A stretch of 64,000 nt of DNA. It comes from Nereocystis luetkeana. Taxonomy: Eukaryota; Sar; Phaeophyceae; Laminariales; Laminariaceae. The translations under genes were made by a program, and so were the position numbers. Shown here in pieces: positions 15,358-48,539 of the stretch. The stretch's first letter is position 1, and each line of letters begins with the position of its first letter. The DNA lies in NCBI GenBank assembly GCA_031213475.1, contig JARUPZ010000037.1, forward strand, positions 2,358,222 through 2,422,221. The letters run 5' to 3'. Below the pieces are notes generated by a model. The model was not told where the DNA came from. It did not search any database and saw only the letters and a program-made list of their open reading frames with translations.

Positions 15358-15859
15358 GTTTACAAGAGTTTGTTTGTTGTGCACTTTTTGGTGTGTAGAT
15401 ATTTCGTGGTTTTCTAGGCCTACCCCACCTTGAAGAAATCACCCCCTTGTTCTCCTACTGTTTTTTTCTGTTGGATCGTGCGCCAGAAGCAATTTTCGGT
15501 ATTGCTTTCTACTTCTGCGTTGCCGTTCAAAACCCAGACCACCCGCATACCAATGGTGTGCGGTATCGTGTGTAGCAGATCAGGGTTGCCGCAAGAGCAG
15601 GAGATGTCTTTCGACAACAGCAGGCAGGTTTTTTTACAACCAAAATGTTATCAAGGCCAACCGCAGCCAGGTTTTTGGACAACCAAAATGTTTTCAAGGC
15701 CTCCTGAAACGCTTGAAAAAAGGTTTTTGAAGCGGCTTAAAACGACACGGCGCAGGTCGATCAGCATTCTGAGCCTTAGCGATACATACATACGCCCTTC
15801 TATGGTAGCCAGCACGGGGTGAGACCCTCCTCGAGACATAACCGACCTGAACTAGCTCT

Positions 15860-18800: not shown

Positions 18801-21800
18801 GTTTGTAGAGGACGGAGGCAGAATCAAACTATGGACCAGTGTTTGGCATAGATAATTGGGTGTAAAATTGTTTGATTTCAGGCTGCGGGGGAGAGTAAGG
18901 AGGGAGAAAAAGAACACGGAATGTGAATGGCCGCCGTTTTCACTTGTGTTTCGTGCCTTGCGTACTCGTGTGCGAAACATCCATCGCGGCAGGCTAGGCC
19001 GTTTGTCGGGGACGCTGACTCCCTTCCACCGCCGCTTGTATGGTTGATCCGCACGTTTTATTCACGCTCCATCCTACCGTAGGTTCCAGTGTATCAGCCA
19101 CAAGAACTTGGTCCCCGTCGTCTCCCTTAGCGAGGCGCGCCAGCAAATAATGATGGAGAAAATGGCTGGCGACCTCCACGACTTGCTTGAAAACGAGGAG
19201 TTCATGAAGAAAGTTCCGAAGGCAAAACTCATGACGTGAGGAACGTCCACATTAAAAATAAACGACACAAAGTTATCCGTTTTTTAGTTATGTTTTTTTT
19301 TTTTCCCATCCCGTGCGCCGATGCCTTTCATCGCAACCCTTCGCCTTTGCGCGACGAAACCTGCTGTCTTTCGTTCCAACATGCGCCCAGGATGTTTCCC
19401 ACACATCCCAATTCCGCATCTCCCGGTTCATCGCTTCACCCCCTCCGCCCCCTTCCCTTTCCGCGTGTCAAAGCAAACTCGCCGGTATAGGGGATGCCTT
19501 GGCGTTCCTTCACGACAATGGCATTATCCACAACGACGTGAAGCCGGGCAACATCCTCCACGACCGGGGCTGCAGCAAGTTCGTTCTGACGGACTTGGGC
19601 TTGGCCGGAGGCGAGTGTGGAGACTGCCAAACAAGGAAACGCGCAGCTAATTACGACGTTTGATCGTTGACCCGTTCTACGATAGAGGTAGCACAATTCC
19701 GCTATTTTGTTTCTGAAACACGGGGTTCTTTGACCCCAAAACGTCGGAATTTCAATCTTGATTTCGAATTTGTTTTTTTTGTAGACTCGAGCGATGGGAT
19801 TATACGCCGCGATGCGTTTTGGTTTTTGCTGGAGTCCGTTTTCGGAGGGGGTATGGAGTTCCTTAAGTGAGGAGCCTCAGAGAAAATATAGGGTGAACCT
19901 CTATCGTAGAACGCCTCCGTTTGTCGAAGCACCGCAAGAGGAAATTCAAGACGCCAACAGAAATATGCCATCGCACTCAAGATGAGCCGAACCTATCACA
20001 AGCTGAATTTGACAACAACAAAAAACCCCAACCCTCAAAACTGTCGACCCCAACCAAGCGCAGAGGCCGGAAACCACTTGGCCACGAACGGAACTCCGCC
20101 GTGGATGCCGCCCGAGGCCGTCGAGTCGTTGTACGGAGAGGATGAAACGCCTGCATTCGTGATGGACGCCTCGTTCGATGCGTACTCCCTGGGCATCGTA
20201 GCTCACCAGCTGCTGACCGGGTCGCCTTTACCTCTAACCTGCGGAGAGGTGGGTGCCGTCGAGACTTCGTACCATGGGTACAGCAGCTGGTGGCATGGTG
20301 CCGGCTGGAACATAGCATGCGATGACTCTCTCAGTCGAAACTCCAACAAAGCTTCGAACGACAAAACTGCGTACCACCACGTGTGTGAGCTCGCGGGAAA
20401 CTAACTTGTTATACAGCTGGAGTAGCACGCGAAAGTACGGGAACGATCTCATCTACAGCAGCAGCAGCAGCAGCAGCGGCGGCGGCGGCGGCGGCAACAG
20501 CAGCAGCAGCGGCAGCAGAACGTCAGCTTTTAAAGAGGAATTGCGTACTGCTAGAAGTGTAGGTCACTCTTGTGGCATGCCGTCTGCTTTTCCGTTGCTA
20601 ACATGGTCGCAATTCGCTCCCCGTCCCTTGCAGATGACTTTCGCGCACAGGGAGCACACCCCTGAAAGTATGACGAAGACCATTCTGGGGAACTTTGTCA
20701 AGGTCCACCTTGACAGAGCCGACGCTGCGGACGACGCGACCCGCGACATGTTCCAGACAACTATACACAACCTCTACGTGAGCTTTTAAATATGTATACG
20801 ATCGTGTATGAATCGAAGTTTAATGTATTTACATCAGGAGTACTTATTGGCGTCGTTAACATGTATCGATATCAGCTGCGAGAAGCTCAGCAGATACCAT
20901 TTTGATAGGAGATGCGTGGCGTGTTCGTATGGTATCATAGCGGAATGATATTCCGATTCCATCTGGGGTGTGGAAGGGAACAAGCGTCGCTTGCACCTTG
21001 GGCGTGGAAGTTTTTTGTCGGCACATAAAGCATACCGGCAGGAGTTATTGGGGAATTTGACTATCGGAGAAAAGGGGAAGACACCAGTAAGGAATGTCGA
21101 TAAAATAGTCAGCAGTCTTCTATCGGGCCCGTTCTACTGTTCTAATGATGCTGCTGCGAAACATGTCGCGCATAACTGTGTTTTTCAGTCACCCCTACCG
21201 AGGGCACACCCCACCGTCACCCATCGCGAACAGACGCGTCTTGACGATACCTCTCGCTCGATATCAAGCCCCCTTCCTACACCTCTCCCCCCCCGCCCCC
21301 GCCCGTCCCCTCTCTTTGCTCCCCAAGGACTCGTACATCACCCAGGAGTGCCGCATGGGCAACTTGGAGAAGACACTCTTATCGGAATCAGTGTTTCCCG
21401 GGATCAAGGGGCTACGATTTAAGAAGGAGGTGAGAGATTTTGACGATTAACGGGGGTTCGTCTTGGGAGTACGGTATGATATTACTGAGTAAGATGGACC
21501 CGCGAACACCTTAGTCGTAGCTTGTATGCGGAAGAAACGAAGACAACGGTAGCACTGTAACTACCTTGGAAAGTAGATAGAAAAACATACCATGGTGATT
21601 GTTTCAGCTGGGTCAAGCTGGATATCCCACGGAAAGTGTGATGCCGGAGATCGGCTCCGTGCGACCGAAAATCTCCTAATTAAAACAATCATATAGTAGC
21701 CTTGAGACACTCGACGCCAAAATTGCGTTCCTTACTCGCGGGTGCTTTCTATACTACTTACAGGCAAGCTTGTGGTAGAAGATTCCGCACCCCAGTAAAC

Positions 21801-22341
21801 GTACAACGAGGTGATTTCAACTGCTGCCGTAGAAGCCTAGCAAAATAATGCGCAAAATGCACCGAAGAGTTTGCTGGCGGCGCGCTAACGCGCTCCGGAG
21901 GCCAGGGAGTTGAAGCATGGTTATGCCATCCACGCCATGACCGCGCGCCCACCCCCATTCCCACCCCGGTTCGCGTTTTACGCCGCTTGGTAACCATCTC
22001 TGCTCTCCTCTACTCGTTCTCCACCACAATAATAGGTTGCGGATGTCTTCAAGGCGACCCTGCACAGAGATCCTCGCCTGCGTTTGCCACTGGAAAGCCT
22101 CAACGAGCTCTTGCGTGATCAGCGTCTGTGGTCGATGGGGTCGACACCTGCCTTCGGTAGCCTTGCTGCGGGCGTGCCTGAAAGGGTGCGCAGCGTTTTG
22201 GAAAGGGAAAACCCGGTGAACGAGAACTTGCCGATAGGCTCATGGTTCAAGGCGGCGGACTTTGTTCCGTGGTGGACGGGATTGAAACCCCTGATCTCCG
22301 AGCTGCACATTCTGTCGAAGAGGGTGCGGCAACAGAGATAG
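15860..22341 (+). CDS. Divergent protein kinase with acidic, internally duplicated N-terminal region
   Basis: Best exons: 15956 (or ATG 15860)-17743, 19083-19235, 19474-19614, 20059-20248, 20634-20777, 21328-21429 and 22036-22341 (TAG). Phases agree across the mapped junctions. Two microexons (17863-17896 and 18481-18499) would bridge the only gap in phase. Exon 1 is a very acidic Glu/Asp/Gly region made of two copies of one module, each ending PIYRWLRRAELDEGGVAF, then the glycine loop IGDGSFGDV (17627-17653) and a lysine in FVVKGPKE (17729). The later exons give SHKNLVPVV and MMEKMAGDL, the catalytic loop IIHNDVKPGNIL (HND in place of HRD, catalytic Asp present), DLGLAGG (DLG for DFG), GTPPWMPPEAV (activation-segment end), DAYSLGIVAHQLLTG and a C-lobe LHRDPRLRLPLESL. 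The key Lys, both Asp and Glu are kept, so activity is possible. The exon before 20059 uses a weak AAG acceptor. Substrate and pathway are unknown. Degraded copies of its exons fill 33-48 kb. Confidence 0.8.
15970..17590 (+). repeat. In-frame tandem duplication of the acidic kinase N-terminal module
   Basis: Copy 1 (about 15970-16893) and copy 2 (about 16905-17586) share, in order, a Gly run, SSGDSS, IESAPTAE, a long Glu/Asp/Gly tract, EDDMED, RPEGHPVSPPVV, PIYRWLRRAELDEGGVAF and DDI. The last ~70 codons are nearly identical, the acidic middle much less so. Inside the tracts, shorter units (GGEEMVNAFEGEEEVER and its neighbour) are duplicated again. Such GAG/GAA runs expand by slippage. Confidence 0.85.
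18031..18273. mobile_element. MITE family K, copy 1, in a kinase intron
   Basis: 243 bp bounded by CGCGTTCTACGATAGAAGTA and its complement ending ACCTCTACCGTAGAACGCG. Internal landmarks TTTTTTGTTTCTGAA, AAAATCGTCGGAACGTCAAT and AAGTGAGGAGCCTC are shared with copy 2. No coding capacity. Confidence 0.85.
19673..19913. mobile_element. MITE family K, copy 2, in the next large kinase intron
   Basis: 241 bp with CGTTCTACGATAGAGGTAGC at the left and GAACCTCTATCGTAGAACG at the right. It has the same internal order and orientation as copy 1, and lies between the DLG exon and the PPE exon. Confidence 0.85.
20455..20519 (+). repeat. CAG/CGG trinucleotide repeat in a kinase intron
   Basis: CAG(n) then CGG(n) then CAG(n), 21 or so triplets, between the exon ending at 20248 and the exon starting at 20634. 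It would read Ser/Gly-rich in one frame but lies outside the exon model. Confidence 0.85.
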
Positions 22342-27829: not shown

Positions 27830-27940
27830 CTATTACGGGGGTCCATAGTTAATAGGACCAAATATTGTTACTAAAAATGCTTAAATCTATAGGTTTTAAT
27901 GTGTACCATAGGTCCTATTAACTATGACCCCCCGTAATAG
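27830..27940. mobile_element. MITE family T, copy 7
   Basis: TTACGGGGGTCCATAGTTAA at the left, CCCCCCGTAA at the right, TA both sides, GTTACTAAAAATGC interior. Confidence 0.88.
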
Positions 27941-29067: not shown

Positions 29068-29394
29068 CTGCGGGAGAGTGAAGAAATCGGGACGTGTAAC
29101 GTGGTGCAAATATTCAAGCTTTCGTATCGCACTCTGCTGTTGTACATAAAACAGCCTTCTCCACGTCGTACACATATGAGTACGATGGAAGTATGATGGT
29201 GTTGAAGGTGTGCTCAGAGAGCTCAAATTATGTTTTTAGACTAGGTTTTGAGCCATTTTCAAGGTTCCTCGCGATGAAGTTCACTTATCGGTGCCTGACC
29301 GTGCTCACGTTTCGCGATTCTGCCGGGGGTAGCCTCAGCCGTGCTCGTGCTGTGTTTCGGCATAGAGTACGGTTCCTCATCCACTCGTGGCTGG

Positions 29395-32270: not shown

Positions 32271-32867
32271 AACCATATCTATTGTGATGTGCAGTCATCA
32301 CACGAGCTTACTAAGAGTATCTTATGATAGATGCGGAGAAATACGATATGCGGCGAGACTTGAGTTTGTTCTTTCTTGCCGACGCACTGTATTCAACTTA
32401 TCTCTATCATACTGATCGTAACGCAGGGTAGCTAGTCTACCACAATAGGTAGCAGGTAACGTTCCATAGAGCGTTACGAGTACGCTACATAGAACGTTGC
32501 AGGGGCATTGCTAGGAACGGTTCACGGAACCTTGACGGGCTGCTGTAGAATAAACCTGCCCGTAGCATGGGCATTGTCTCGTGATCAGGTGATGGCATGC
32601 CCCACCTTGCTCTCTCTTCCATTACTCCTCTTCCATTCCTTTCCTTTCCTCTCTTCTTCTCCTTTCCTCTTCTCCTCTTGATCTCTGAGATCAAGATTCC
32701 TTCTATGATGGCCAATTAAGCGCCAATTTCAAACCATCTTCTTTTTTCATCACAAGTGATCTTCACAGACACTTCGGTGCCGCCTCTGCATCTCTTCTCA
32801 TAGAAGACAGAGCCTCAACATGCATTATTCCTTCAGGTCATGACCCTCGAGGTTATGAGCCCCCCTT
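32271..32867. other. Spacer between satellite blocks; no gene seen
   Basis: Unrelated to the satellite. Includes short repeated ACGTTCCATAGAGCGTTACG-like words near 32460 and a pyrimidine-rich tract (32610-32700). Confidence 0.5.
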
Positions 32868-33400
32868 CACTTCTTATCTCCTCTCGTCAACGCCGGCATT
32901 GCTGAGCCCGGTTTGGGGAGGAGAGCGTCTGTGGGCCCTCCAGTCAGCTTGGGTTTTCCTCCCGCTTGCACCCGAGCTGCGTTGTCTCTCCTGCGGCGGG
33001 CATAAAGAAGTTGCTGCCGCGCCCTCCTCCACCCGCGGTTCCTCATCATACCTCCTTGCGCCCTCCTCCACCCGCGGTTCCTTATCATACCTCCTTACTT
33101 CCTTCTCATCAACGCCTCCATTTCTGAGCCCGGCTTAAGGGGGGTTCATCTGTGGCGCCGTCCGGTAAGATTCCTTTTCCCCCCTTTCTGCAAATACTGG
33201 GGGGGTAAAAAAGGTGCTATGACACCCCCCTCCGCCCGCGAATCGTCATCATAGCTCCTTACTTCCATCTTCTAAACGCCAGCATTGCTGATCCCGGCTC
33301 GGGGGGTGGTCGTCTGTGGACCCTCCAGTAAAATTTCCTGGTTTCCTCTCCTGCCAACACCAGTGCCGCGTTCCCTCCCCTACGGCGTGCACAAAAAATA
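32868..33400. repeat. Satellite, second block, three forward units
   Basis: The landmark is forward near 32890, 33112 and 33277. A 45-bp internal segment (GCGCCCTCCTCCACCCGCGG...) is tandemly doubled at about 33025-33085. The block runs directly into inverted kinase-derived sequence. Confidence 0.8.
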
Positions 33401-33605
33401 TGCAAAGCTTACTGAAAGGTACACAGAAACGATCGAACCGGTTTCTGGACGAGAGCGGGAGGGTTATGCAACGGCACACATTAGAGACCCGAACACCTGA
33501 ACCAGGCAACTTGCCCGCTCACTTTGTTGGGTTCTTGTCACTCCAATAGCTTTGCTTCGGGAACATTTCCCATCAGCTCTGCATTCACCAGCAAACCGTC
33601 CAGGT
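33401..33605 (-). pseudogene. Kinase-derived fragment, inverted
   Basis: Corresponds, on the minus strand, to the end of the kinase exon ending at 19235 and the following intron. It resembles the right half of the 1257-bp units (GATCGAACCGGTTTC..., CATCAGCTCTGCATTCACCAGCAAA in diverged form). It meets the forward copy head to head at about 33605. Confidence 0.55.
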
Positions 33606-34640
33606 GACCGGCCATGTGGACCATCAAGATCGTGAAGGTCAATATGGCCGGTGACCTCCACGGCTTGCTGGGAAACACCGGGATGATGGCAAAGGTTCCG
33701 AAGGCCAAGCTATTGACGTGAAAAACGTCCTCAACATAAACGAAAGAGACACGTAATTTCTTTCAATGTGTTTTCTATCCCGTGTGTCTATGACTTTCCG
33801 TGCAGCCCTTCTCATATGGGAAACAAACCGACGCTTTTTCACTCAGCGAATTCCTACATATCCCGCACCCCTCGGTACGCCGCGTCACTTCTCCCCTCTT
33901 CCCCCTCCGTGAAAGCAACCTCGCTTGCATAGGGGGCACGTTGGCGTTCCTTCAAGATTGTGGAATCATTCACTACGACGTCAAGCCCAGAAATAGTCTA
34001 CACGATCGGAGGTACTATATGTTTATCGTGGAGTTGGGCATGGGCCGAAGGCACGTATACCCGTTACCGGTTGAGGAGAAAAACAGCTGCGGCAGTAAAA
34101 TACGGGCATCTTCCTTCGGATCGAACGGCGAGGGGGCGGGCAGAGAAACTGAGGCAAGGAGGGAGCGAAGAGGGAATTCGAGCCGTTGATTGCGTACTCC
34201 CTGATAGGTCGGGTGAAGATCAATATACGAAACCTGTGCCATGAAAACGAAAGAGCTAACAGCATACCGAGATCATGGGCGAGGTTTCAAAGGCCAAGCT
34301 CTTGACGTGAGAAACGTCCGCAACATATATCAACAACATACTCTACCATCCGGTAATCCAGTGCAACTCTTTCAATTCGAATAATAAGCCCACCTAATTT
34401 CAATTGGTATACACCCCGCATCCCCCGGTAAACCGCGTCACCCTCCCCCCTACTCGCCGCGAGAAAAAAAGGACCTCACCTGCATAGGGGATCCCCTTAT
34501 GATTGTGCAATCATCCACTACGACGTTAAGCCCCGAAGCATCCTACACGATCGGAGGTACAGCACGTTTGTACTCGGCTTGGGGGTGGGCCGAACGCACG
34601 TATACCCGCCAAGGAGAAGAAGAGCTGCAGCAGTGATATG
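33606..34640 (+). pseudogene. Kinase-derived pseudogene copy, two successive exon2-intron-exon3 segments
   Basis: 33640-33718 matches the source exon (ATGGCCGGTGACCTCCACGG; GTTCCGAAGGCCAAGCT) with its GTGA donor, then intron sequence, then 33928-34055 reads ACIGGTLAFLQDCGIIHYDV then KPRNSLHDRR and GMGRRH. The catalytic-loop HND has become HYD. A second round follows: donor-like TTGACGTGAGAAACGTCC at 34301 and exon-3-like 34478-34610 (CAIIHYDVKPRSILHD). Introns are kept, so these are DNA-level duplications. Frames are interrupted and no complete domain can be made. Confidence 0.75.
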
Positions 34641-34799
34641 CGTGGGGGGCGTACTCATTCTTTGCTTTTGTTAGTCATTTGACCATTGATCACGCATATC
34701 TTTCGAAACGGAGCACCCCTCCGACTCCTATTAAAAACACATCCAACAGTTGGGCGATGCAGAGGTCAGGACACCGTACACGCCTACCGACACGTCCGT

Positions 34800-35013
34800 A
34801 GCGAGCGGTGGACCGAGACGTCGCGGCAGGCTCGTTGTTCAGCCCCATCGACTTTGTCGCGTTGTGGGAGAACCTGGAACCCCTCACCAGTAGGCTGCAC
34901 GTTATCTCAAGGAGTCTTCAAAAGGTGGTGGATGTCCTCACGGCGACCTTGAACAAGGATTCTAGCCCGCGCCTGCCACTAGTCAAGTTGGCCAGTGGTG
35001 AGCGCGGGTAGGG
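34800..35013 (+). pseudogene. Fragment of the last kinase exon, rearranged
   Basis: Reads AGSLFSPIDFVALWENLEPL then TSRLHVISRS, matching GSWFKAADFVPWWTGLKPL of the source exon. Directly afterwards it reads VVDVLTATLNKDSSPRLPL, matching the beginning of the same source exon (VADVFKATLHRDPRLRLPL). The exon order is therefore end-then-start, as at a tandem duplication junction. Confidence 0.7.
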
Positions 35014-35049
35014 GTCCTTGTGTGGGGTTGCCTTCGATCCATTCACCCC

Positions 35050-36482
35050 CCTATTAACGATTCTTCGACGGACGGTGTACCTCGCGGATGTGGGAATCCA
35101 GATCCGCCCGAGACGGGACAAAGTTGGCGGTGCGGATCCACGAGTCTGCCACGAAGTCTCGGGCCACCGAATGATCCCTGTGCGAGATCCCGTGCAACCT
35201 TCCCTTATTCCCGCCGCTGGGGGTACCAAAAGGCCTCACAACTCAGTGTTGACGAGGCCCAGAGAGATTCAAGACACACCCTTGTATCACGGGTCCGGAC
35301 ACACATGAATCGATTCCTTGTAAATCACGGACTGCCCCAGGCGAACCAGCCCTATGCCGAAGCTGCATCCGGGGACAAGTCGCGCATACCAGCGAAAATC
35401 CTTCGTCGCACAAAATTGACCTTACTTTTCCGTAAACCAGCATCGGTAACCGCTGTATCTGTGCATTTTTGCGAAGGAAGATTGCTGTGGCCCCTCCTAG
35501 ACCAGCTCGTATAAAGAACAGTGCTGTGGTAGGCACAATACCTGGTATCATACAGAGCGAGGCATAAGCGAACGTCACGGGGTAGCCGACGCCATTTTTT
35601 CTAACACATTTTCTTACCACTATTCATAGACAACACTGCTCCCGCGTGTTCAAGGACAAGATACATGCAATGTTAGCATCCGAAGCGCAGATCTGCCCGC
35701 TAGGGGTCATCGCACGCTACCACATACCGGCCCGCACACGCCACCACCAACAGCACTACGAACTACACAAACCTCGACGGTACTCACCATTCCGCTGACC
35801 ACTTACATAGGCGCCCCAGTCAGTAGGTAGTGAGCCAAGATGGTGACGAAGAATACGTCGAACGATGTGAGTGCATCGGTACGTCGAAGAGCACGCTACC
35901 ACCCCCGTACATCGACGTCACAGCCTCGAGTGGCATGCACGCCGCCACTTTCGCCGTCCGCCAAGCTCTTTCCAGCCAGCACCTACACACTATGCGGTTG
36001 ACAGGTGTTAGGTTTGGGTTGTGATCGGATCGAGTCTTGATAGGTTGGGCTTGTTGTAAAATCAATTGTATCTTGTTCCTGTTTCAACAGAAGGCAGGGG
36101 GTGACTTGGGCCATTTCCTTCCCGAGAGATGTTCCACAAAGAGAATACAACAATGTATCGCCGAAGTTCAATCAATGCGAATGGTTCTGGGCTCAACATG
36201 GATACGATTTCACGGTCGTACAGGAAGGGCGAACCGCCGTCTGCGCCGGCAAGTTTTCTTCATCGCGGGGTGGGACAGGCGCAGGGAAGGGGGTGATGCA
36301 GTCAGTCGGGAAGTGCGGCATGTTCGAAAAAAATGTGAACGATCGAACAGGTGATCCGCGCGAAGAGAAGGGTTGCACTGAAAGGCATCGACACACATCA
36401 CGCAAGAATACCTCAATTATCTTTGCTTTCGAGATCTTGCTGATCAGCTCTGTATTGGCCAGCGAGCCGGCTCGACCACAGC
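35050..36482 (-). pseudogene. Inverted kinase pseudogene spanning several exons
   Basis: On the minus strand the order follows the source gene: exon-2-like (36482-36400), exon-3-like (about 36290-36163, ending near AAACTTGCCGGCGCAGACGG), PPE-exon-like at about 35990-35850 (ACMPLEAVTSMYGGG for WMPPEAVESLYGE) and last-exon-like at 35239-35054 (DSWIRTANFVPSRADLDSHI). Intron spacing is roughly retained but frames are broken. The copy faces forward copies on both sides. Confidence 0.65.
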
Positions 36483-36794
36483 CCACTTTGACCATCATGA
36501 TCTTCTGTTTCTCCTCAGCTGATCGTCCTGCTCAAAATGGCGGGCAATCTGAACGGCATGCTGAGCGCTACAATCTTCATGCACAAAACCCCAAAAGCAA
36601 ATCAAATAACAGTAGCAACACAAACAAAAGACGCAATGTCATCCGTTTCTTTATCGTCCCCCATCCCGTGCGTTGATGACTTTCAGTGCAACCCTTCTCT
36701 TTTCTCAGAGAAAGCGACTCTCCTTCCGTCCACCTACAAAACCTACAACTCTTGATTCACCGCGTCAACCCCCCTTATTTTCCCGTGCGTCGAA
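36483..36794 (+). pseudogene. Kinase exon-2-like segment and intron leading into the tandem array
   Basis: 36538-36600 (AAAATGGCGGGCAATCTGAA...) resembles the MAGDLHDLLE exon, followed by intron sequence with ATCCCGTGCGTTGATGACTT and ACCGCGTCAACCCC, matching the source intron before 19473. The array repeat begins at about 36795. Confidence 0.6.
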
Positions 36795-39700
36795 GCAACC
36801 TCGTCTGCATAGGGGACGCTTTGGCATCCCTCCATGATCGTGAACCCATCCACTGAAACGTAACGCCCGGAAACAATCTATACGACCGGAGGTAAATCAT
36901 GGTTGTTTTGGACTTGGAGGTGGGCCGAAGGCACGTATACCAAGAACTGCGATAGTAACACACGAATATCTTCCTCTGGGTAGAACGGGGAGATACAGGG
37001 AGAGAGGGAACGAGAGAGTGAAGGGGGTATTTCTGCTGTTGATTGCGTATCCCCTGATACGTCGGGTAAGGTTCAGAGTACGAATCCTGTGCGATGAAAA
37101 CGGAAGAGCTGTTAGTTGAGCTTGGGCGAATGGGGTCGGGTTTGTTTTCACGAAAACCGTGGGAAACAAAAATAGGTTCAAAAGGTGTGCGCCCTGCTCA
37201 CGGTTTGTGCTTCGTATTTGATGTTTGTAAATGTTATAACTGTTGTTTTGATCACTAAATCTGCGCAGAAACGGTTTATTTTCTCAGCCGGCATGCTTGT
37301 CTCCGACCAACCCAACGCCCGCCAGAACGACCTTGCTGTACCCCGATCGTGCAGAATGGTTCCGGGCATAATATCGAAATGGGCGATTTCATGGTAGTCG
37401 AGACCGGCAATTCGCCCGCTACACCGGGGAGTTTGCCTTGACACGGCGGTAGAAGGAGGGGTCGAGGGAGGAGAGGTGACGCGGTGAATCGGAAGGTACG
37501 GGAAGAACAGAAAAGGGTCGAGCGATCAAACCGGTTTCGGGTGAGAAAAGGAAGGGTTGCGCTGAAAGTCGTGCCGGCATATAATGCAAGAACACAAACA
37601 CCGGGAAACTTGCTCGTTCACTTCACTGGAGGTTCATCACTTTATTGGGTTTGCTTTCGGGACTGTACCCATCAGCCCTGCGTTGACCAGCAAAACATCC
37701 AGGCCAACGACCGCCTTGGTCCCACAGAATAAGGTGTCGTACCTCGCTGACACAGCCGCAGTCATCAGGCTCTTGTGGCCTCTGCAGCTAGACCTGAGAA
37801 CAAGCGTAGGTAGATCGATCAGCCATACGGGCCGTTGATCTACCGACGCTCGTTCCCAGGTTTGGCCGCAACGGTCACACGAAGCTTATGACTGCGATCT
37901 GTATGAGTGAGGTCCGACAATTTATGATAATGGCCAAGAAGATCAATGATCGTTTCGCGATAAACCCGACTTTATTTCGCTCACCATTCTTACACATCGC
38001 ATACCCCCCTGTGCACCGCGTCGCCCCCCCCTCTCGTCCCCGCGCGTCACAGCAACCTCGTCTGCATAGGGGACGCTTTGGCATCCCTCCATGTTTGTGG
38101 ACCCATCCACTGAAACGTAACGCCCGGAAACAATCTATACGGCCGGAGGTAAATCATGGTTGTTTTGGACTTGGAGGTGGGCCGAAGGCACGTATACCAA
38201 GAACTGCGATAGTAACACACGAATATCTTCCTCTGGGTAGAACGGGGAGATACAGGGAGAGAGGGAACGAGAGAGTGAAGGGGGTATTTCTGCTGTTGAT
38301 TGCGTATCCCCTGATACGTCGGGTAAGGTTCAGAGTACGAAACCTGTGCGATGAAAACGGAAGAGCTGTTAGTTGAGCTTGGGCGAATGGGGTCGGGTTT
38401 GTTTTCACGAAAACCGTGGGAAACAAAAATAGGTTCAAAAGGTGTGCGCCCTGCTCACGGTTTGTGCTTCGTATTTGATGTTTGTAAATGTTATAACTGT
38501 TGTTTTGATCACTAAATCTGCGCAGAAACGGTTTATTTTCTCAGCCGGCATGCTTGTCTCCGACCAACCCAACGCCCGCCAGAACGACCTTGCTGTACCC
38601 CGATCGTGCAGAATGGTTCCGGGCATAATATCGAAATGGGCGATTTCATGGTAGTCGAGACCGGCAATTCGCCCGCTACACCGAGGAGTTTGCCTTGACA
38701 CGGCGGTAGAAGGAGGGGTCGAGGGAGGAGAGGTGACGCGGTGAATCGGAAGGTACGGGAAGAACAGAAAAGGGTCGAGCGATCAAACCGGTTTCGGGTG
38801 AGAAAAGGAAGGGTTGCGCTGAAAGTCGTGCCGGCATATAATGCAAGAACACAAACACCGGGAAACTTGCTCGTTCACTTCACTGGAGGTTCATCACTTT
38901 ATTGGGTTTGCTTTCGGGACTGTACCCATCAGCCCTGCGTTGACCAGCAAAGCATCCAGGCCAACGACCGCCTTGGTCCCACAGAATAAGGTGTCGTACC
39001 TCGCTGACACAGCCGCAGTCATCAGGCTCTTGTGGCCTCTGCAGCTAGACCTGAGAACAAGCGTAGGTAGATCGATCAGCCATACGGGCCGTTGATCTAC
39101 CGACGCTCGTTCCCAGGTTTGGCCGCAACGGTCACACGAAGCTTATGACTGCGATCTGTATGAGTGAGGTCCGACAATTTATGATAATGGCCAAGAAGAT
39201 CAATGATCGTTTCGCGATAAACCCGACTTTATTTCGCTCACCATTCTTACACATCGCATACCCCCCTGTGCACCGCGTCGCCCCCCCCTCTCGTCCCCGC
39301 GCGTCGAAGCAACCTCGTCTGCATAGGGGACGCTTTGGCATCCCTCCATGATCGTGAACCCATCCACTGAAACGTAACGCCCGGAAACAATCTATACGAC
39401 CGGAGGTAAATCATGGTTGTTTTGGACTTGGAGGTGGGCCGAAGGCACGTATACCAAGAACTGCGATAGTAACACACGAATATCTTCCTCTGGGTAGAAC
39501 GGGGAGATACAGGGAGAGAGGGAACGAGAGAGTGAAGGGGGTATTTCTGCTGTTGATTGCGTATCCCCTGATACGTCGGGTAAGGTTCAGAGTACGAATC
39601 CTGTGCGATGAAAACGGAAGAGCTGTTAGTTGAGCTTGGGCGAATGGGGTCGGGTTTGTTTTCACGAAAACCGTGGGAAACAAAAATAGGTTCAAAAGGT

Positions 39701-42700
39701 GTGCGCCCTGCTCACGGTTTGTGCTTCGTATTTGATGTTTGTAAATGTTATAACTGTTGTTTTGATCACTAAATCTGCGCAGAAACGGTTTATTTTCTCA
39801 GCCGGCATGCTTGTCTCCGACCAACCCAACGCCCGCCAGAACGACCTTGCTGTACCCCGATCGTGCAGAATGGTTCCGGGCATAATATCGAAATGGGCGA
39901 TTTCATGGTAGTCGAGACCGGCAATTCGCCCGCTACACCGAGGAGTTTGCCTTGACACGGCGGTAGAAGGAGGGGTCGAGGGAGGAGAGGTGACGCGGTG
40001 AATCGGAAGGTACGGGAAGAACAGAAAAGGGTCGAGCGATCAAACCGGTTTCGGGTGAGAAAAGGAAGGGTTGCGCTGAAAGTCGTGCCGGCATATAATG
40101 CAAGAACACAAACACCGGGAAACTTGCTCGTTCACTTCACTGGAGGTTCATCACTTTATTGGGTTTGCTTTCGGGACTGTACCCATCAGCCCTGCGTTGA
40201 CCAGCAAAACATCCAGGCCAACGACCGCCTTGGTCCCACAGAATAAGGTGTCGTACCTCGCTGACACAGCCGCAGTCATCAGGCTCTTGTGGCCTCTGCA
40301 GCTAGACCTGAGAACAAGCGTAGGTAGATCGCTCAGCCATACGGGCCGTTGATCTACCGACGCTCGTTCCCAGGTTTGGCCGCAACGGTCACACGAAGCT
40401 TATGACTGCGATCTGTATGAGTGAGGTCCGACAATTTATGATAATGGCCAAGAAGATCAATGATCGTTTCGCGATAAACCCGACTTTATTTCGCTCACCA
40501 TTCTTACACATCGCATACCCCCCTGTGCACCGCGTCGCCCCCCCCTCTCGTCCCCGCGCGTCACAGCAACCTCGTCTGCATAGGGGACGCTTTGGCATCC
40601 CTCCATGTTTGTGGACCCATCCACTGAAACGTAACGCCCGGAAACAATCTATACGGCCGGAGGTAAATCATGGTTGTTTTGGACTTGGAGGTGGGCCGAA
40701 GGCACGTATACCAAGAACTGCGATAGTAACACACGAATATCTTCCTCTGGGTAGAACGGGGAGATACAGGGAGAGAGGGAACGAGAGAGTGAAGGGGGTA
40801 TTTCTGCTGTTGATTGCGTATCCCCTGATACGTCGGGTAAGGTTCAGAGTACGAAACCTGTGCGATGAAAACGGAAGAGCTGTTAGTTGAGCTTGGGCGA
40901 ATGGGGTCGGGTTTGTTTTCACGAAAACCGTGGGAAACAAAAATAGGTTCAAAAGGTGTGCGCCCTGCTCACGGTTTGTGCTTCGTATTTGATGTTTGTA
41001 AATGTTATAACTGTTGTTTTGATCACTAAATCTGCGCAGAAACGGTTTATTTTCTCAGCCGGCATGCTTGTCTCCGACCAACCCAACGCCCGCCAGAACG
41101 ACCTTGCTGTACCCCGATCGTGCAGAATGGTTCCGGGCATAATATCGAAATGGGCGATTTCATGGTAGTCGAGACCGGCAATTCGCCCGCTACACCGGGG
41201 AGTTTGCCTTGACACGGCGGTAGAAGGAGGGGTCGAGGGAGGAGAGGTGACGCGGTGAATCGGAAGGTACGGGAAGAACAGAAAAGGGTCGAGCGATCAA
41301 ACCGGTTTCGGGTGAGAAAAGGAAGGGTTGCGCTGAAAGTCGTGCCGGCATATAATGCAAGAACACAAACACCGGGAAACTTGCTCTTTTACTTCACTGG
41401 GGGTTCATCACTTTATGGGGTTTGCTTTCGGAACTGTACCCATCAGCCCTGCGTTGACCAGCAAAACATCCAGGCCAACGACCGTCTTGGTCCCACAGAA
41501 TAAGGGGTCGTACCTCGCTGACACAGCCGCAGTCATCAGGCTCTTGTGGCCTCTGCAGCTAGACCTGAGAACAAGCGTAGGTAGATCGATCAGCCATACG
41601 GGCCGTTGATCTACCGACGCTCGTTCCCAGGTTTGGCCGCAACGGTCACACGAAGCTTATGACTGCGATCTGTATGAGTGAGGTCCGACAATTTATGATA
41701 ATGGCCAAGAAGATCAATGATCGTTTCGCGATAAACCCGACTTTATTTCGCTCACCATTCTTACACATCGCATACCCCCCTGTGCACCGCGTCGCCCCCC
41801 CCTCTCGTCCCCGCGCGTCACAGCAACCTCGTCTGCATAGGGGACGCTTTGGCATCTCTCCATGTTTGTGGACCCATCCACTGAAACGTAACGCCCGGAA
41901 ACAATCTATACGGCCGGAGGTAAATCATGGTTGTTTTGGACTTGGAGGTGGGCCGAAGGCACGTATACCAAGAACTGCGATAGTAACACACGAATATCTT
42001 CCTCTGGGTAGAACGGGGAGATACAGGGAGAGAGGGAACGAGAGAGTGAAGGGGGTATTTCTGCTGTTGATTGCGTATCCCCTGATACGTCGGGTAAGGT
42101 TCAGAGTACGAAACCTGTGCGATGAAAACGGAAGAGCTGTTAGTTGAGCTTGGGCGAATGGGGTCGGGTTTGTTTTCACGAAAACCGTGGGAAACAAAAA
42201 TAGGTTCAAAAGGTGTGCGCCCTGCTCACGGTTTGTGCTTCGTATTTGATGTTTGTAAATGTTATAACTGTTGTTTTGATCACTAAATCTGCGCAGAAAC
42301 GGTTTATTTTCTCAGCCGGCATGCTTGTCTCCGACCAACCCAACGCCCGCCAGAACGACCTTGCTGTACCCCGATCGTGCAGAATGGTTCCGGGCATAAT
42401 ATCGAAATGGGCGATTTCATGGTAGTCGAGACCGGCAATTCGCCCGCTACACCGAGGAGTTTGCCTTGACACGGCGGTAGAAGGAGGGGTCGAGGGAGGA
42501 GAGGTGACGCGGTGAATCGGAAGGTACGGGAAGAACAGAAAAGGGTCGAGCGATCAAACCGGTTTCGGGTGAGAAAAGGAAGGGTTGCGCTGAAAGTCGT
42601 GCCGGCATATAATGCAAGAACACAAACACCGGGAAACTTGCTCGTTCACTTCACTGGAGGTTCATCACTTTATTGGGTTTGCTTTCGGGACTGTACCCAT

Positions 42701-44330
42701 CAGCCCTGCGTTGACCAGCAAAACATCCAGGCCAACGACCGCCTTGGTCCCACAGAATAAGGTGTCGTACCTCGCTGACACAGCCGCAGTCATCAGGCTC
42801 TTGTGGCCTCTGCAGCTAGACCTGAGAACAAGCGTAGGTAGATCGATCAGCCATACGGGCCGTTGATCTACCGACGCTCGTTCCCAGGTTTGGCCGCAAC
42901 GGTCACACGAAGCTTATGACTGCGATCTGTATGAGTGAGGTCCGACAATTTATGATAATGGCCAAGAAGATCAATGATCGTTTCGCGATAAACCCGACTT
43001 TATTTCGCTCACCATTCTTACACATCGCATACCCCCCTGTGCACCGCGTCGCCCCCCCCTCTCGTCCCCGCGCGTCACAGCAACCTCGTCTGCATAGGGG
43101 ACGCTTTGGCATCCCTCCATGTTTGTGGACCCATCCACTGAAACGTAACGCCCGGAAACAATCTATACGGCCGGAGGTAAATCATGGTTGTTTTGGACTT
43201 GGAGGTGGGCCGAAGGCACGTATACCAAGAACTGCGATAGTAACACACGAATATCTTCCTCTGGGTAGAACGGGGAGATACAGGGAGAGAGGGAACGAGA
43301 GAGTGAAGGGGGTATTTCTGCTGTTGATTGCGTATCCCCTGATACGTCGGGTAAGGTTCAGAGTACGAAACCTGTGCGATGAAAACGGAAGAGCTGTTAG
43401 TTGAGCTTGGGCGAATGGGGTCGGGTTTGTTTTCACGAAAACCGTGGGAAACAAAAATAGGTTCAAAAGGTGTGCGCCCTGCTCACGGTTTGTGCTTCGT
43501 ATTTGATGTTTGTAAATGTTATAACTGTTGTTTTGATCACTAAATCTGCGCAGAAACGGTTTATTTTCTCAGCCGGCATGCTTGTCTCCGACCAACCCAA
43601 CGCCCGCCAGAACGACCTTGCTGTACCCCGATCGTGCAGAATGGTTCCGGGCATAATATCGAAATGGGCGATTTCATGGTAGTCGAGACCGGCAATTCGC
43701 CCGCTACACCGGGGAGTTTGCCTTGACACGGCGGTAGAAGGAGGGGTCGAGGGAGGAGAGGTGACGCGGTGAATCGGAAGGTACGGGAAGAACAGAAAAG
43801 GGTCGAGCGATCAAACCGGTTTCGGGTGAGAAAAGGAAGGGTTGCGCTGAAAGTCGTGCCGGCATATAATGCAAGAACACAAACACCGGGAAACTTGCTC
43901 GTTCACTTCAGCTTTATTGGGTTTGCTTTCGGGACTGTACCCATCAGCCCTGCGTTGACCAGCAAAGCATCCAGGCCAACGACCGCCTTGGTCCCACAGA
44001 ATAAGGTGTCGTACCTCGCTGACACAGCCGCAGTCATCAGGCTCTTGTGGCCTCTGCAGCTAGACCTGAGAACAAGCGTAGGTACATCGATCAGCCATAC
44101 GGGCCGTTGATCTACCGACGCTCGTTCCCAGGTTTGGCCGCAACGGTCACACGAAGCTTATGACTGCGATCTGTATGAGTGAGGTCCGACAATTTATGAT
44201 AATGGCCAAGAAGATCAATGATCGTTTCGCGATAAACCCGACATTATTTCGCTCACCATTCTTACACATCGCATACCCCCCTGTGCACCGCGTCGCCCCC
44301 CCCTCTCGTCCCCGCGCGTCACAGCAACCC
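36795..44330. repeat. Six-unit tandem array, 1257-bp units, each an inverted pair of kinase fragments
   Basis: Units start near 36795, 38052, 39309, 40566, 41823 and 43080; the last is 13 bp shorter (deletion at about 43909). Units differ at only a few positions by eye. In each, a forward exon-3-like piece (CTGCATAGGGGACGCTTTGG; CGCCCGGAAACAATCTATAC) is followed by intron-like sequence, then by the same gene region inverted (minus strand reads ALDYHEIAHFDIMPGTILHD-like with exon-2 and intron sequence beyond), then by a dyad and forward exon-2-like sequence leading to the next unit. Units 1 and 3 share variants (GTGCGTCGAAGC/GCGCGTCGAAGC, GATCGTGAAC, CGAATCCTG) absent from the other units. The repeated 60-162-codon frames are by-products. 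Confidence 0.92.
37793..37860. repeat. Dyad (hairpin) at the centre of each 1257-bp unit
   Basis: CCTGAGAACAAGCGTAGGTA GATC and, after a ~14-base loop (AGCCATACGGGCCG), GATCTACC GACGCTCGTTCCCAGG pair over ~26 bases with three mismatches. The dyad repeats at +1257 intervals (39050, 40307, 41564, 42821) and, with a GTACATC change, near 44065. It is where the inverted and forward kinase fragments meet. Confidence 0.85.
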
Positions 44331-45260
44331 CGTCTGCGTAGGGGACGCTTTGGCGTTCCTCCACGTTCGTGGACTGGTCACAACGACGCGCAGCCACGAA
44401 TGTTTTTACACGATCGGAGGTAAAGTACGTTAGTCCTGGACTTGGGCGTGCTCAAAGGAACGTATACCGGTAAAGGAGAAAGAGCGCTGCTGCTTGCATC
44501 GCTCAAGACGGGTTGCGAGGCGCAAGAATACAATGGGAGCGACGCAGAAAGCCCATAAATTTGTTCGGAGTTCCCGTAGTTCGAAATGGTTTTAGATTTT
44601 CCCAGCCATCGGAGCAAAGGCCGTTGTAGTTCACCACCATCGGAGAAAATACCTGCTCCAAGTCGCCCAAGCTCCACGAACAGCTGTTTTATTCTTGCGG
44701 GTGATGTTTCGCACATGGAACATCAAGGCGTAGCAGTCATCGACCGAAGCTCTTTCCACCCTTCTTTCGATCGATTCGTAGAAGCATACGCGCGTTCGAT
44801 GCCACAACGCGTGCGGCGTGATCTACCGAACGAGCATCGACGAAAATACCTTGCTTTCGCTCATGGAAACTCTTGAGGAAAATAAGTGGTCAAACGTCGC
44901 CCCCTTGTCCTATGTTGAAACGGATGCATTCGAACCCAACAAAAGCTTTACCTTGACTAAAAATAGCAGAACCGACACAAGCCAAGCTCCAACACATGTC
45001 AACCATGACATAAGCGAACGCTGGGAGTAGCTAGTGGAAGGCCCCGTCGTGAAGGCTGCCCGAGGCCGTCGGGTCGCTCTATGGGAATGTCTGCGTGCCG
45101 TTTGATGTAAACAAGCCACACACTTCGGTCGAGTTCTGCTCCCTGACCATCGCGGCTCACTAGTTGCCGATCGGGTCGTCTAAACCTGTCGTATGCGCAG
45201 CGGTCGCCGCTAACGTCTCATCGTGTGATTCGTACTGTAGTTGGTGGCATGTACGCCTGG
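44331..45260 (+). pseudogene. Kinase-derived pseudogene downstream of the array
   Basis: The forward exon-3-like sequence continues from the array to about 44470. 45053-45185 matches the PPE exon (CTGCCCGAGGCCGTCGGGTCG, then TCCCTGACCATCGCGGCTCA CTAG): here the HQLL segment meets a TAG. The intron start is still recognisable after it (TTGGTGGCATG at 45241, matching 20290). Between them, 44740-45030 holds a 70-codon frame (IYRTSIDENTLLSLMETLEE) of unknown origin with no obvious counterpart in the source gene. Confidence 0.7.
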
Positions 45261-45842
45261 TACATCAAAACGTGATTACGCCCCACCCCCCCCCCCCCCC
45301 CCACCCGAACGGCCATGCAGGATATCGAATACACTCCTGCCCCCGCCCCCCCAAACGTAGCGTATTTTGACTATCGGTCGGCTCTCCAAAACTAAGGTTG
45401 AGACGTTGGGATTGCAACAATGGGAGCGCAACGACGTGCGTGGGAGCGCGGGACTAGTCTACCTTGTGATACTTCAGGCTTGACAAAAGAAAGGGGGAGG
45501 CAATCCGTGACGCCAACGTTAGCCCCACTGCATGATGCCTACTACGAAGACTAGGTATCGTAACGAGAAAATTCCACCAACAGTAAGTACCACAATGTTT
45601 GTAATACCTGCATGTCATGAAGGCCGGCCGTAACTGCGTTACAGGCGTTTCGACCGGGGTCCCCATCTTTTTTGCGCGGTTAACTTGGAAATTTCTTTCG
45701 CTCGTAGTAAATACATCAACAAGTGCAACAAGTGATGAACAAAAAAGTGATAATTTAAATTAATTTAGACATAAACAAATAAATAGTTGTGTGCACATCA
45801 AATGCATATCCAATAAATCACACGACCTGACCCTACTGCTGG
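45261..45842. other. No gene recognised; poly-C tract
   Basis: 45282-45304 is a C-run with few interruptions. The rest shows only short frames. Confidence 0.4.
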
Positions 45843-46178
45843 CATCCCCGGTGGCTTAGTAGGTGGTCCGTGTGCCTACTAAGATCAGTTTAGTGGGTTC
45901 GAGTCGCCGAGTTTATACTCGTAAGGACTTTTTCTAGCAAAACAAATTATTAGTGGAAGGCGGAGAGCGTGAGTTAGAAACGTTCGATGCAAATCGACGA
46001 GCAGTGGGGATGCTGCTGAACCCTATGCGCGATACAAATGAATACACATGAAAGCACGTACCGGGGGGAAAAAGGGGCGACACATGTGACCACGGCTTCT
46101 GCAGAAGACCGCTAAGGGTAAACATCCTACGAGTAAAGTTGGAAAGCAAAAGTGATGATTGAAAAAAAACAAAAAATA
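45843..46178 (+). mobile_element. SINE-like element, copy 2
   Basis: Head CATCCCCGGTGGCTTAGTAG and GTGGGTTCGAGTCGCCGAG (box A/B-like), then TTTTTCTAGCAAA, CGTTCGATGCAAATCGACGA, AACCCTATGCGCGATA, GAAAGCACGTACCGGGG, TGTGACCACGGCTTC, AAGACCGCTAAGG and an A-rich tail GAAAAAAAACAAAAAA. Nearly the same order as at 53691. Confidence 0.8.
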
Positions 46179-46364
46179 GAACGAGTCAATGCCGGCGCAC
46201 GGCAGCACTCTGCAGATGTCTTTGAGCGAAGGTAACGGTGTGTAATCCCCAACATGGCCGCGCTCCCGCCTCCATACCCTCGTGTCACATTGTTTTGCGC
46301 CCTTTGGCAATCGTTTTCCCTATATCATAATCTACTTTATACTACTACCAGCATATAATAGGCC

Positions 46365-47000
46365 GTACACGTGTTCAAAGCTACCCTACCAAATACCAGA
46401 ACCCACGCTTGCCACTGGCGACCCTGGAAACTGACACTAATACTACAGTAGTAAAAAATTTTGTTATACGGTGTAGCTCGTGGATAAGGAGTCCTAGACC
46501 CTTCCACCACGGGACAAAGTCGATGGCGTTGGCCCACAAGCCTGCCGCAAAGTCTTCGTCCGCCGGACGACCTCTATGCAGGACGCGGTGCACCCTTGCC
46601 AACACATCCGTAGCGGGGCTGTCGTCAAGGAGAGGATGGGGCCTGTCGTCAATAACACAGACACCCGCCTTCGGAAGCCTCGATACGGGCGTACTTACAA
46701 AGGCACGCCAAGTCCTGCAAAGCGACCCGGTTGACCAAGACTTCATGGCAGGCTCGTGGTTCGAGGCCACCGATTTTGTCGAGTGGTGGGATTGCTCGAA
46801 TAGTATGTACTCGCGACAGGCTGAGCTGGTTTGATCAATGAATGCTTGATATTTGGTTTCGGCAGCGTGCCGGTGCCGTGAGAAACAGGCAAGGATCGGA
46901 TTATGAGGGCGCCGAAGAAAAGAGCGAGGGGCGTAAGGAATGAGAGGGGCGCGGTAACGACAGCTGGCCTGACGCGCTACAAGTGATGAAAGTTTTTTTC
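46365..47000. pseudogene. Copies of the last kinase exon, forward-inverted-forward
   Basis: 46370-46435 (+) reads VFKATL then frameshifts. 46640-46460 (-) reads VHRVLHRGRPADEDFAAGLW then ANAIDFVPWWKGLG. 46660-46834 (+) reads TPAFGSLDTGVL... and AGSWFEATDFVEWWD, matching GSTPAFGSLAAGV and GSWFKAADFVPWW of the source exon. 46862-46990 matches the source 3' flank. The inverted copy is open for about 130 codons without a functional context. Confidence 0.7.
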
Positions 47001-47715
47001 TAGCTTAAATGGGCGTGATTGGCTCCGCTCAAAGAACTCTTGTGGTTTGTTCCAGTTGTATTAGTATCATTTTTCCCCCAGGACCTCAGTCCACGCTTGC
47101 CATAGGGACAGTTTCAGCCAGCTAGAAGCGGATTGAAGCTATTCAGAGGGTGCAAGCTGGTTGAAACGGCTCAGTGGCAAAAGCGGGCTGGTAGGGCAGC
47201 TCTGAAAAACTTGGCGAAAAAAAATGCTGGTAACAGTATTGAGCTTGAGGTAGGCCAGTGGCAAGCGCAAGCTGGGGTCCTCGTGTAAGGTACATCCACG
47301 ACCCACCATTGGGACAAGCCGATCGTGTTGAATCACGAGTGCCCCGAAGCCTTGGTCCACCGAATATCTGTGCACGAAGTCCTCCACAGAGGACTAGTGG
47401 GCGAAATCTTCGAGGGCGGGGCATGGTACAACGCCATCGACTCAGTCTCGTGGTGGGAGGGCCTACAATCCCTCACCCGCGAGCTACACCGTTTCTTGAG
47501 GAGTCCGCGGTGTTAGCAATCCACTATAAATATACCATGCAACTGCGAGGGGCATGCATGATGAATCCTTGATATTTGTGTTGCCAACAACTTGCCGGTG
47601 CGGTGAGGAGTTGGCGAGGGTGAAGCCAGAACATCGCTCGAAAGTGGAACGGGCGCGGAAGGTATCGGAAGGGGGCGGCAGCGACAATTGGCCTTACGCG
47701 CTATAAGTACTAGGA
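47001..47715. pseudogene. Second inverted pair of last-kinase-exon copies
   Basis: Minus strand 47310-47250 reads LHEDPSLRLPLAYLK (source LHRDPRLRLPLESL). Plus strand 47346-47505 reads EALVHRISVHEVLHRGLVGE and YNAIDSVSWWEGLQSLTREL. 47588-47710 is source-like 3' flank (TTGCCGGTGCGGTGAGGAG). The two halves meet at about 47330. Confidence 0.65.
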
Positions 47716-48539
47716 AAGTTTTTGTATTTACATAAAAAGCGAGACAACATATTATCCACGGTGTTTGGAATCGACTTCTTAATAGCTTGATTAACCCCGG
47801 CAAATGATACATTCGGGTTGTTTGGGTAGTGTTAGTACCAGTTTATCCCGAGGTCTAGGAGGGTACTCATACTTCGGGCAAGCGAGAAAGGCGAGGTTAC
47901 AGGCAGGGGTGGCTTGTTCACGCGTTTGCTTCTGGATTTTTCCGTCATGTTCGTAGCGCTGTGAAACCGTGCTGGTTGGTTTAGCTTGCTGTACTGTACT
48001 GTGAACGCTGTAACAAAATACATGCAGCAGAGCCGGCCTATTTACACGCTTACCGCACGGGAAAGCGTTAGAAACAGACACTCCCACGGTGTTGAGATTA
48101 TATACCCCCGGCGTCAATTATTCAGTTTCGCCGCGACTTAACGACCGACCACCGTTTCCCCCCTGGGAGATTATAGCATACGCTCTGCTCGTTAGTCTCA
48201 CGCGCTTGAATAGCCCAATGCAAAATCGAAAAAAAATGCAGGAACACCGGCAACCACGACAATGGTCGGAAGCACCAAAGGACCCACCGTCTTGATGACG
48301 ACTGCTGTGGGTCTTTGAGGAGATGTTCCGGGCAAAACTTCGAGCTGCCGCGTTGATATCTTCGCTCAGATGCACCCCACTCTCAGTCTGTAGCGGTTAG
48401 GCCGTTCTCGCTCTTCAAGTGCTGCTGCCGACTCTTCATTTCTCGACGTACCCCGTCACCGCAGGAACACCCAGCTTTCCACCTGCCCAACGTTCAATAC
48501 CATGCGGTCTGAGTCAATTGAGAGTGTTGGTTTCAGGAC
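47716..48539. other. No gene recognised
   Basis: Short frames on both strands only. A ~108-codon minus-strand frame (47791-48117) has no domain. Confidence 0.35.

What the first reader, a model, noticed from the sequence alone, without database searches (positions are those of the whole stretch)
33401..47715. Alternating forward/inverted kinase-derived copies downstream of one source gene
Seen: segments related to kinase exons and introns at 19083-22341 recur in order - (33.4-33.6), + (33.6-35.0), - (35.05-36.48), + (36.48 to array), six -/+ pairs in the array, + (44.3-46.4), - (46.46-46.64), + (46.66-47.0), - (47.25-47.31), + (47.35-47.7). Introns and even the 3' flank are included, so copying was at DNA level, not by retroposition. 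Exon order in the inverted copy at 35-36.5 kb follows the gene. Inference: repeated template switching or foldback replication generated inverted duplications that were then amplified.
Basis: partly seen in the sequence, partly recalled or inferred. Interest (0 to 1): 0.8.

Follow-up and report, generated by a model that had tools for sequence, protein, structure and literature searches.

The report
Tandem inverted pairs of dead kinases
Next to an intact protein kinase gene in a brown alga lies a graveyard of broken kinase copies in alternating directions, best explained for the most part by one copy being flipped to face its neighbour and that facing pair then being duplicated side by side, rather than by a separate flip each time.

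Summary
Kinase exons 3, 4, 5 and 8, with intron 3 and 3' flank, recur in alternating orientation at 33.4-47.7 kb (39 bins hit; 0 in each of 20 shuffles and 7 control stretches). The proposed mechanism is only partly right. In exon 4 and exon 3+4 trees the plus copies tested form one lineage and the minus copies another; neighbouring minus/plus pairs as sisters are rejected at three junctions (AU p 0.025, 0.005, 2e-6, uncorrected). So one inversion made a head-to-head pair, and that pair was then duplicated directly: eight pairs by my count, the central 1,257-bp array being recent. Six junctions are zero-spacer palindromes. Codon positions show no constraint on the plus copies. Hairpin mismatches show no overall RNA-structure selection. 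"One source gene" is too simple: two more paralogues match along the whole query on this contig, and K3 is only weakly the nearest. The host is a brown alga. The closest parallel found is the mouse Mup class B array. Exon 8 pieces are unresolved and may need a further inversion. A small-RNA role is possible but has no positive evidence here.

The parts
15851..22341 (+). Kinase gene K3, at least eight exons (bounds by eye from splice sites: 15851-17743, ~18391-18440, 19087-19236, 19474-~19640, 20082-20248, 20633-20775, 21328-21428, 22035-22341)
   Evidence: Joined exons (end of exon 1 to exon 8) give Pkinase E 1.5e-25; two paralogues on the same contig, K1 (L045, +) and K2 (L046, -)
33427..33629 (-). 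Block A: minus exon 3 and adjoining intron 3 side; the other repeat family reaches 33427
33630..34987 (+). Block B: plus exon 3, intron 3, exon 4, a second partial exon 3/4 (34265-34640), exon 8 pieces
33535..33724 (.). Zero-spacer head-to-head palindrome in exon 3, centre 33629.5, 74.7% identity
34806..35169 (.). Zero-spacer tail-to-tail palindrome in exon 8, centre 34987.5, 65% over 364 bp
34988..36511 (-). Block C: minus exon 8, exon 5, exon 4, exon 3, in gene order on the minus strand
36422..36601 (.). Decayed head-to-head palindrome, centre 36511.5, 57% (E 2e-6)
36512..37110 (+). Block D: plus exon 3, intron 3, exon 4; the array begins at 36.78-36.82 kb, at exon 4
36780..44350 (.). Tandem array, period 1257 bp, six units: minus exon 4 + exon 3, palindrome, plus exon 4. 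Five units differ by 2-14 bases; the sixth is 98% with a 13-bp deletion. Edges approximate
37729..37925 (.). Central palindrome of the array unit (found six times), 72.7%, centre 37827, about 33 bp before the exon 3 acceptor on each arm
44281..45251 (+). Block E: plus exon 4 (array ends inside it, near 44.35 kb) and exon 5
46459..46625 (-). Minus exon 8 copy
46642..46997 (+). Plus exon 8 copy with K3-like 3' flank
46504..46789 (.). Zero-spacer head-to-head palindrome in exon 8, centre 46646.5, 65%
47302..47379 (-). Short minus exon 8 remnant, one arm of palindrome 47302-47457 (centre 47379.5, 61%)
47370..47723 (+). Plus exon 8 copy with 3' flank (flank is a direct repeat of 46838-46997, 67.7%)

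Best explanation
A pseudogene cluster made mainly by tandem duplication of one inverted pair. Inferred steps: (1) a relative of K1-K3 was copied at DNA level, introns and 3' flank included, and one copy ended up inverted against another with almost no spacer a little upstream of exon 3, giving a head-to-head palindrome; a hairpin-primed (foldback) event is the likeliest way to join arms so closely. (2) The pair was duplicated directly: eight pairs A/B, C/D, five whole array pairs, and the sixth array minus block with E. (3) The copies decayed without coding constraint; exons 6 and 7 became undetectable and some palindrome centres were shortened. (4) Recently, unequal exchange between plus exon 4 copies spread one shortened pair into the 1,257-bp array. 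Shown: alternation, intron and flank, orientation-specific lineages for exons 3 and 4, zero-spacer junctions, array edges at exon 4, loss of codon constraint in plus exon 4. Inferred: the foldback step, the order of losses, the exchange, and lack of function. At least one further inversion in the exon 8 part is likely.
For: Exon 4 tree (11 of 19 rows; near-identical array copies left out): plus copies one clade 100/99, minus copies 96/94, sister to each other apart from K1-K3. Four other alignments: plus 99-100, minus 97, 98, 95 and 87. Neighbours as sisters rejected: am1+ap p 2.4e-6 and 2e-4 or lower in four alignments; Cm with D/E/ap p 0.005. Exon 3+4 joined (8 rows, without B2, E and array plus): minus 99/97, plus 93/93 (not starred); Am+Bp p 0.025, Cm+Dp p 0.005. 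Zero-spacer palindromes; array centre equally far from the exon 3 acceptor on both arms. Array edges at plus exon 4. Differences at codon positions 1/2/3: 0.28/0.25/0.26 among four plus copies against 0.14/0.10/0.25 among K1-K3. Intron and flank.
Against: In exon 3 alone Am is nearer its neighbour Bp (72%) than the other minus copies (63-64%); the exon 3 tree (8 of 11 rows) resolves nothing and puts Cm with Dp at 42/30. In A/B and the array the arms are more alike in the first 100 bp (0.70-0.74) than farther out, so copying between arms near the centre, or separate centres, is possible. Exon 8 does not split by orientation: a plus clade is weakly rejected (p 0.042), and so is the neighbour pair 46.5/46.7 (p 0.023). 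The tail-to-tail palindrome at 34987 has no spacer either, which plain duplication of a pair would not predict. Block A has no exon 4, so its place rests on exon 3 and intron 3. The p values are not corrected for the number of tests.
Confidence: 0.72

Rival explanations
1. Repeated foldback or template switching made each inverted pair separately; the pairs were then amplified.
For: Six different zero-spacer palindrome centres, one of them tail-to-tail at 34987; arms most alike close to the centre in A/B and the array; Am nearest Bp in exon 3.
Against: Neighbour pairs as sisters are rejected at the three exon 3/4 junctions tested. Still alive for exon 8, where trees do not decide.
Confidence: 0.17
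2. The palindromes are transcribed hairpins that feed small RNAs (a locus born by inverted duplication of a kinase gene), kept for regulating K1-K3 or for something else.
For: Hairpins far below shuffled energies (z -13.7 and -11.8 for the two folded). The 34987 palindrome alone has 24 G-U against 12 A-C mismatches (p 0.065). Same-strand 21-mers match K1 and K2 exons at up to 20 of 21 near 44339, outside the palindromes. In the brown alga Ectocarpus, small RNAs come from 'complex, extensive palindromic sequences' over several hundred bp (PMC4513859, sections 17 and 21 read).
Against: Any decayed palindrome folds well. Over the six palindromes G-U and A-C mismatches are 55 and 61 (p 0.64). No 21-mer is perfectly antisense to the K1-K3 exons tested; best antisense match 19 of 21 (one array unit, SINE and low-complexity words left out). 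No Rfam match at gathering scores in 29000-48500. No expression data.
Confidence: 0.08
3. Gene fragments captured and moved by a transposon (Pack-MULE or Helitron type), inserted here in both directions.
For: Introns are included, as in such capture (recalled); the area holds other mobile elements.
Against: Outside this contig the kinase query gives only weak matches, E 5.5e-6 or worse, and the array unit none. Searches with the two flanking stretches were filled by common repeats and say little. Orientation-specific lineages and the fixed 1,257-bp period fit local duplication. Block ends were not searched for terminal repeats.
Confidence: 0.03

Closest known systems
Mouse Mup class B gene/pseudogene array (PMC2533699; passages found by search read)
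   Same: A head-to-head inverted pair of gene copies duplicated repeatedly as a unit into a tandem array, with one arm decayed.
   Different: Mup pairs keep a coding gene in each unit and have an intergenic region between the genes. Here both arms are broken, the junction has almost no spacer and lies near exon 3, and the final array unit is only 1,257 bp.
Foldback (hairpin-primed) inverted duplications (PMC3907307, passages read; PMC7467729, search listing only)
   Same: Inverted copies joined at a short interval.
   Different: The 21 sequenced human junctions keep a normal-copy spacer of 766 bp or more. Here there is no spacer now, and the pair was later duplicated in tandem.
Inverted-duplication origin of microRNA genes (PMC3237417, abstract and outline read; Allen 2004, seen only in a reference list)
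   Same: Inverted copies of a protein gene able to form a hairpin.
   Different: No perfect antisense 21-mer to the kinase exons, no overall RNA-type mismatch pattern and no expression evidence here.
Palindromic small-RNA regions of Ectocarpus (PMC4513859, two sections read)
   Same: Complex palindromes of several hundred bp in a brown alga.
   Different: That paper detected no evidence that its miRNAs derive from protein-coding genes; these palindromes do derive from one, but nothing shows that they make RNA.

Membership tests
Tandem array of inverted (head-to-head) gene pairs, Mup class B type | Copies alternate in orientation along the array | tested here: met
Tandem array of inverted (head-to-head) gene pairs, Mup class B type | Plus arms form one lineage and minus arms another | tested here: met
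   Exon 4 and exons 3+4 joined: (plus clade 93/93, not starred, in the joined tree)
Tandem array of inverted (head-to-head) gene pairs, Mup class B type | The same holds for the rest of the unit (exon 8) | tested here: inconclusive
Foldback inverted duplication | Inverted copies meet at a short or absent spacer | tested here: met
   Six centres; not at the D/array join
Foldback inverted duplication | Inverted microhomology at the original breakpoint | not testable with these tools
   Arms are 25-43% diverged; the breakpoint letters are lost
Processed (retroposed) pseudogene | Introns absent | tested here: not met
   Intron 3 present in B, C and D
Unprocessed pseudogene cluster | No codon-position constraint among copies | tested here: met
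   Exon 4, four plus copies
Hairpin small-RNA or microRNA locus | Mismatches biased to G-U on one strand | tested here: not met
   55 G-U against 61 A-C over six palindromes; one palindrome alone 24 against 12
Hairpin small-RNA or microRNA locus | Precise small RNAs from the hairpin | not testable with these tools
   no RNA data

The most novel reading that the evidence does not exclude
The array is a hairpin RNA locus in the making: one inverted kinase copy became a palindrome, was multiplied, and is diced into small RNAs. It would be a brown-algal small-RNA locus traced to a protein-coding gene, an origin for which the Ectocarpus survey (PMC4513859) detected no evidence.
Probability: 0.07. 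Interest if true: 0.6.

Novelty: new member of a known kind. Interest (0 to 1): 0.33.

Why it matters
It shows that a striking alternation of orientations can come largely from one inversion plus ordinary tandem duplication, and that lineage trees by orientation tell this apart from repeated template switching. It also gives a graded series of palindrome junctions, from old and eroded to a fresh array, in a brown alga, a group where small RNAs are reported from palindromic regions (PMC4513859).

Tried and rejected
Retroposition: rejected, intron present. Chance similarity: rejected. Transposon capture: no support, though block ends were not examined for it. RNA-hairpin selection: overall mismatch test negative. 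Silencing of K1-K3: a first count (second part) was spoilt by N matching N and is withdrawn; the corrected count finds no perfect antisense 21-mer. Rfam: nothing. Pfam on five large ORFs inside the cluster (46381-47004, 46331-46834, 37810-38376, 36044-36676, 35002-35514): nothing.

Palindromes as a general feature of this genome: at E below 1e-6 there are 31 in 131,323 control bases (28 loci, K1 and K2 loci among them; 22 loci overlapping the kinase matches left out), 20 in the window, 0 in 3 shuffled windows. Nine of the window's 20 lie in the kinase cluster, six being the array centre; C/D and 47379 fall below that cut-off. Of the 31 control palindromes 15 match 25 or more places, the 110-bp family. 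Seven are 150 bp or longer; three of these seven were searched genome-wide: two are families with at least 39 further copies each (40 candidates scored), one was found only at its own place. 22 of the 28 control loci were fetched through repeat hits, so they are not a random sample.

A search with K3 DNA was swamped by the mobile element at 19669-19918 and replaced by a protein search. Exon 8 clade tests failed for misnamed rows and were redone.
Full report
Setting. The window lies at 2,358,222-2,422,221 of contig C37 in a 465-Mb assembly of 1,987 contigs. A light-harvesting protein from the same genome (L052) matches chain 17 of 9YGV at E 8e-119, the next solved chain at 8e-64. 9YGV is photosystem I of the giant kelp Macrocystis pyrifera (PMC13219633, passages read). 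The host is therefore a brown alga, probably a kelp; this rests on one protein, and the species is not known.

The kinase genes. Joined predicted exons of the gene at 15851-22341 (K3) match the Pfam protein kinase domain at 1.5e-25; exon bounds are by eye from the sequence. A genome search with exons 3-8 finds two further relatives matching along the whole query on the same contig, K1 (plus, about 111 kb left of the window) and K2 (minus, about 39 kb left of it), the pseudogene pieces in the window, and matches on other contigs only at E 5.5e-6 or worse (109 of 109 candidates scored). K2 and K3 share flanks as well, in pieces between about 13.9 and 29.1 kb of the window, inverted, at roughly 63-77% identity: an old inverted segmental duplication. 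The pseudogene cluster was not found in the 10 kb beyond the K2 locus (L049) or beyond the K1 locus (L050).

The observation. Exons 3, 4, 5 and 8 recur; exons 1, 6, 7 and intron 2 give no blastn match. Intron 3 occurs in blocks B, C and D, and the 3' flank twice near 46.85 and 47.58 kb, so copying was at DNA level. Identity to K3 over the exon 4 alignment is 57-64%.

The test of mechanism. If each inverted pair arose by its own foldback, neighbouring minus and plus copies should be sisters. In exons 3 and 4 they are not. In exon 4 the plus copies (B, B2, D, E and two array copies) form one lineage and the minus copies (C and an array copy) another, the two being sisters and together apart from K1-K3 (11 of 19 rows, near-identical array copies left out). 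Four other alignments agree, with minus support 97, 98, 95 and 87. Adding exon 3 brings in block A: A, C and the array minus copy group at 99/97, plus B and D at 93/93, and the neighbour pairs A+B and C+D are rejected at p 0.025 and 0.005 (8 rows). Exon 3 alone is undecided, and by plain identity even favours A with B. Exon 8 is undecided: neither orientation forms a supported clade, a plus clade is rejected at p 0.042 and the 46.5/46.7 neighbour pair at p 0.023. These p values are not corrected for the number of tests.

The junctions. Six changes of direction are palindromes without spacer: centres 33629.5, 34987.5, 36511.5, 37827 (repeated in the array), 46646.5 and 47379.5, with 57-75% identity between arms. 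The D/array join, which stands for the plus-to-minus joins inside the array, shows none, and the scan of the whole window lists none for the remaining joins. In the array the two arms meet about 33 bp before the exon 3 acceptor, counted on the alignment; the A/B and C/D centres lie inside exon 3, as expected if bases round the centre were lost later. In A/B and the array the first 100 bp of the arms are 70-74% alike, falling to near the random level of 0.42 farther out; C/D shows no such rise. Some copying between arms near the centre cannot be excluded.

The array. Period 1,257 bp, six units from about 36.78 to 44.35 kb. Five units differ by 2 to 14 bases; the sixth is 98% identical with a 13-bp deletion. 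Both edges fall at or inside a plus exon 4, which fits unequal exchange between plus exon 4 copies. A genome search with one unit found no other near-identical copy.

Age and function. Among K1-K3, exon 4 differs by 0.14, 0.10 and 0.25 at codon positions 1, 2 and 3; among four plus copies by 0.28, 0.25 and 0.26. The plus copies are thus not under coding constraint, and, if third positions are near neutral, their spread is about as old as the K1-K3 split. The two palindromes folded form strong hairpins, but G-U and A-C mismatches over six palindromes are 55 and 61; the palindrome at 34987 alone has 24 and 12 (p 0.065). No antisense 21-mer matches the K1-K3 exons better than 19 of 21; on the same strand the best is 20 of 21. 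Rfam finds nothing. No RNA data were available.

Comparison. The mouse Mup class B array is the nearest published parallel found: an inverted gene/pseudogene pair duplicated repeatedly as a unit (PMC2533699, passages read). Foldback inverted duplications (PMC3907307, passages read) resemble the founding event. In Ectocarpus, palindromic regions of several hundred bp yield small RNAs, and no evidence was detected that its miRNAs derive from protein genes (PMC4513859, two sections read). Nine paper searches listed no report of this locus; only listings were seen for most, and most subscription papers are not in that library.

Verdict. Interesting as a worked case, but a member of a known kind.

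Noticed in passing
29375-33396: A second repeat family, units of about 165-200 bp, mostly 64-79% identical, also in both orientations (by my grouping + --- ++ - + --- then +), directly beside the kinase cluster; a genome search with 29380-31680 matched only this locus. It contains long palindromes, e.g. 30899-31550, 69%. Its origin is unknown.
   Followed up: partly
32250-32869: A 620-bp interspersed element at 94-97% identity in at least 39 other places, some in pairs about 2.9 kb apart: looks like a solo LTR. Observed only.
   Followed up: partly
13900-29100 and L046: Old inverted segmental duplication carrying K2 and K3, its homology ending near 29.1 kb, close to where the alternating repeats begin.
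   Followed up: partly
18029-18276 and 19669-19918: About 250-bp element with terminal inverted repeats (seen by eye) in K3 introns; the K3 DNA search that it filled had 3,411 first-look candidates, 40 scored.
   Followed up: partly
45838-46178 and 53690-54010: SINE-like repeat of about 330 bp; the search that it filled had 3,153 first-look candidates, 40 scored. The tRNA-like start is by eye.
   Followed up: no
7374, 8924, 14176, 14704, 26785, 27830: Palindromic element of about 110 bp, seen at about 27 places in the sequence held.
   Followed up: no
L048:1152-1657 and L026:2130-2814: Long foldback elements (506 bp, 88%; 685 bp, 83% between arms) with at least 39 further copies each.
   Followed up: partly
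L012:2424-2768: A 345-bp palindrome, 69%, found at no other place in the assembly: private palindromes occur elsewhere too.
   Followed up: partly
57103-60268: Dynamin-like gene pieces in two ORFs on the plus strand.
   Followed up: no
15851-17743: Very acidic, internally repeated N-terminal exon of K3 (repeats of 162, 180 and 63 bp), with no blastn match in the pseudogene cluster.
   Followed up: no
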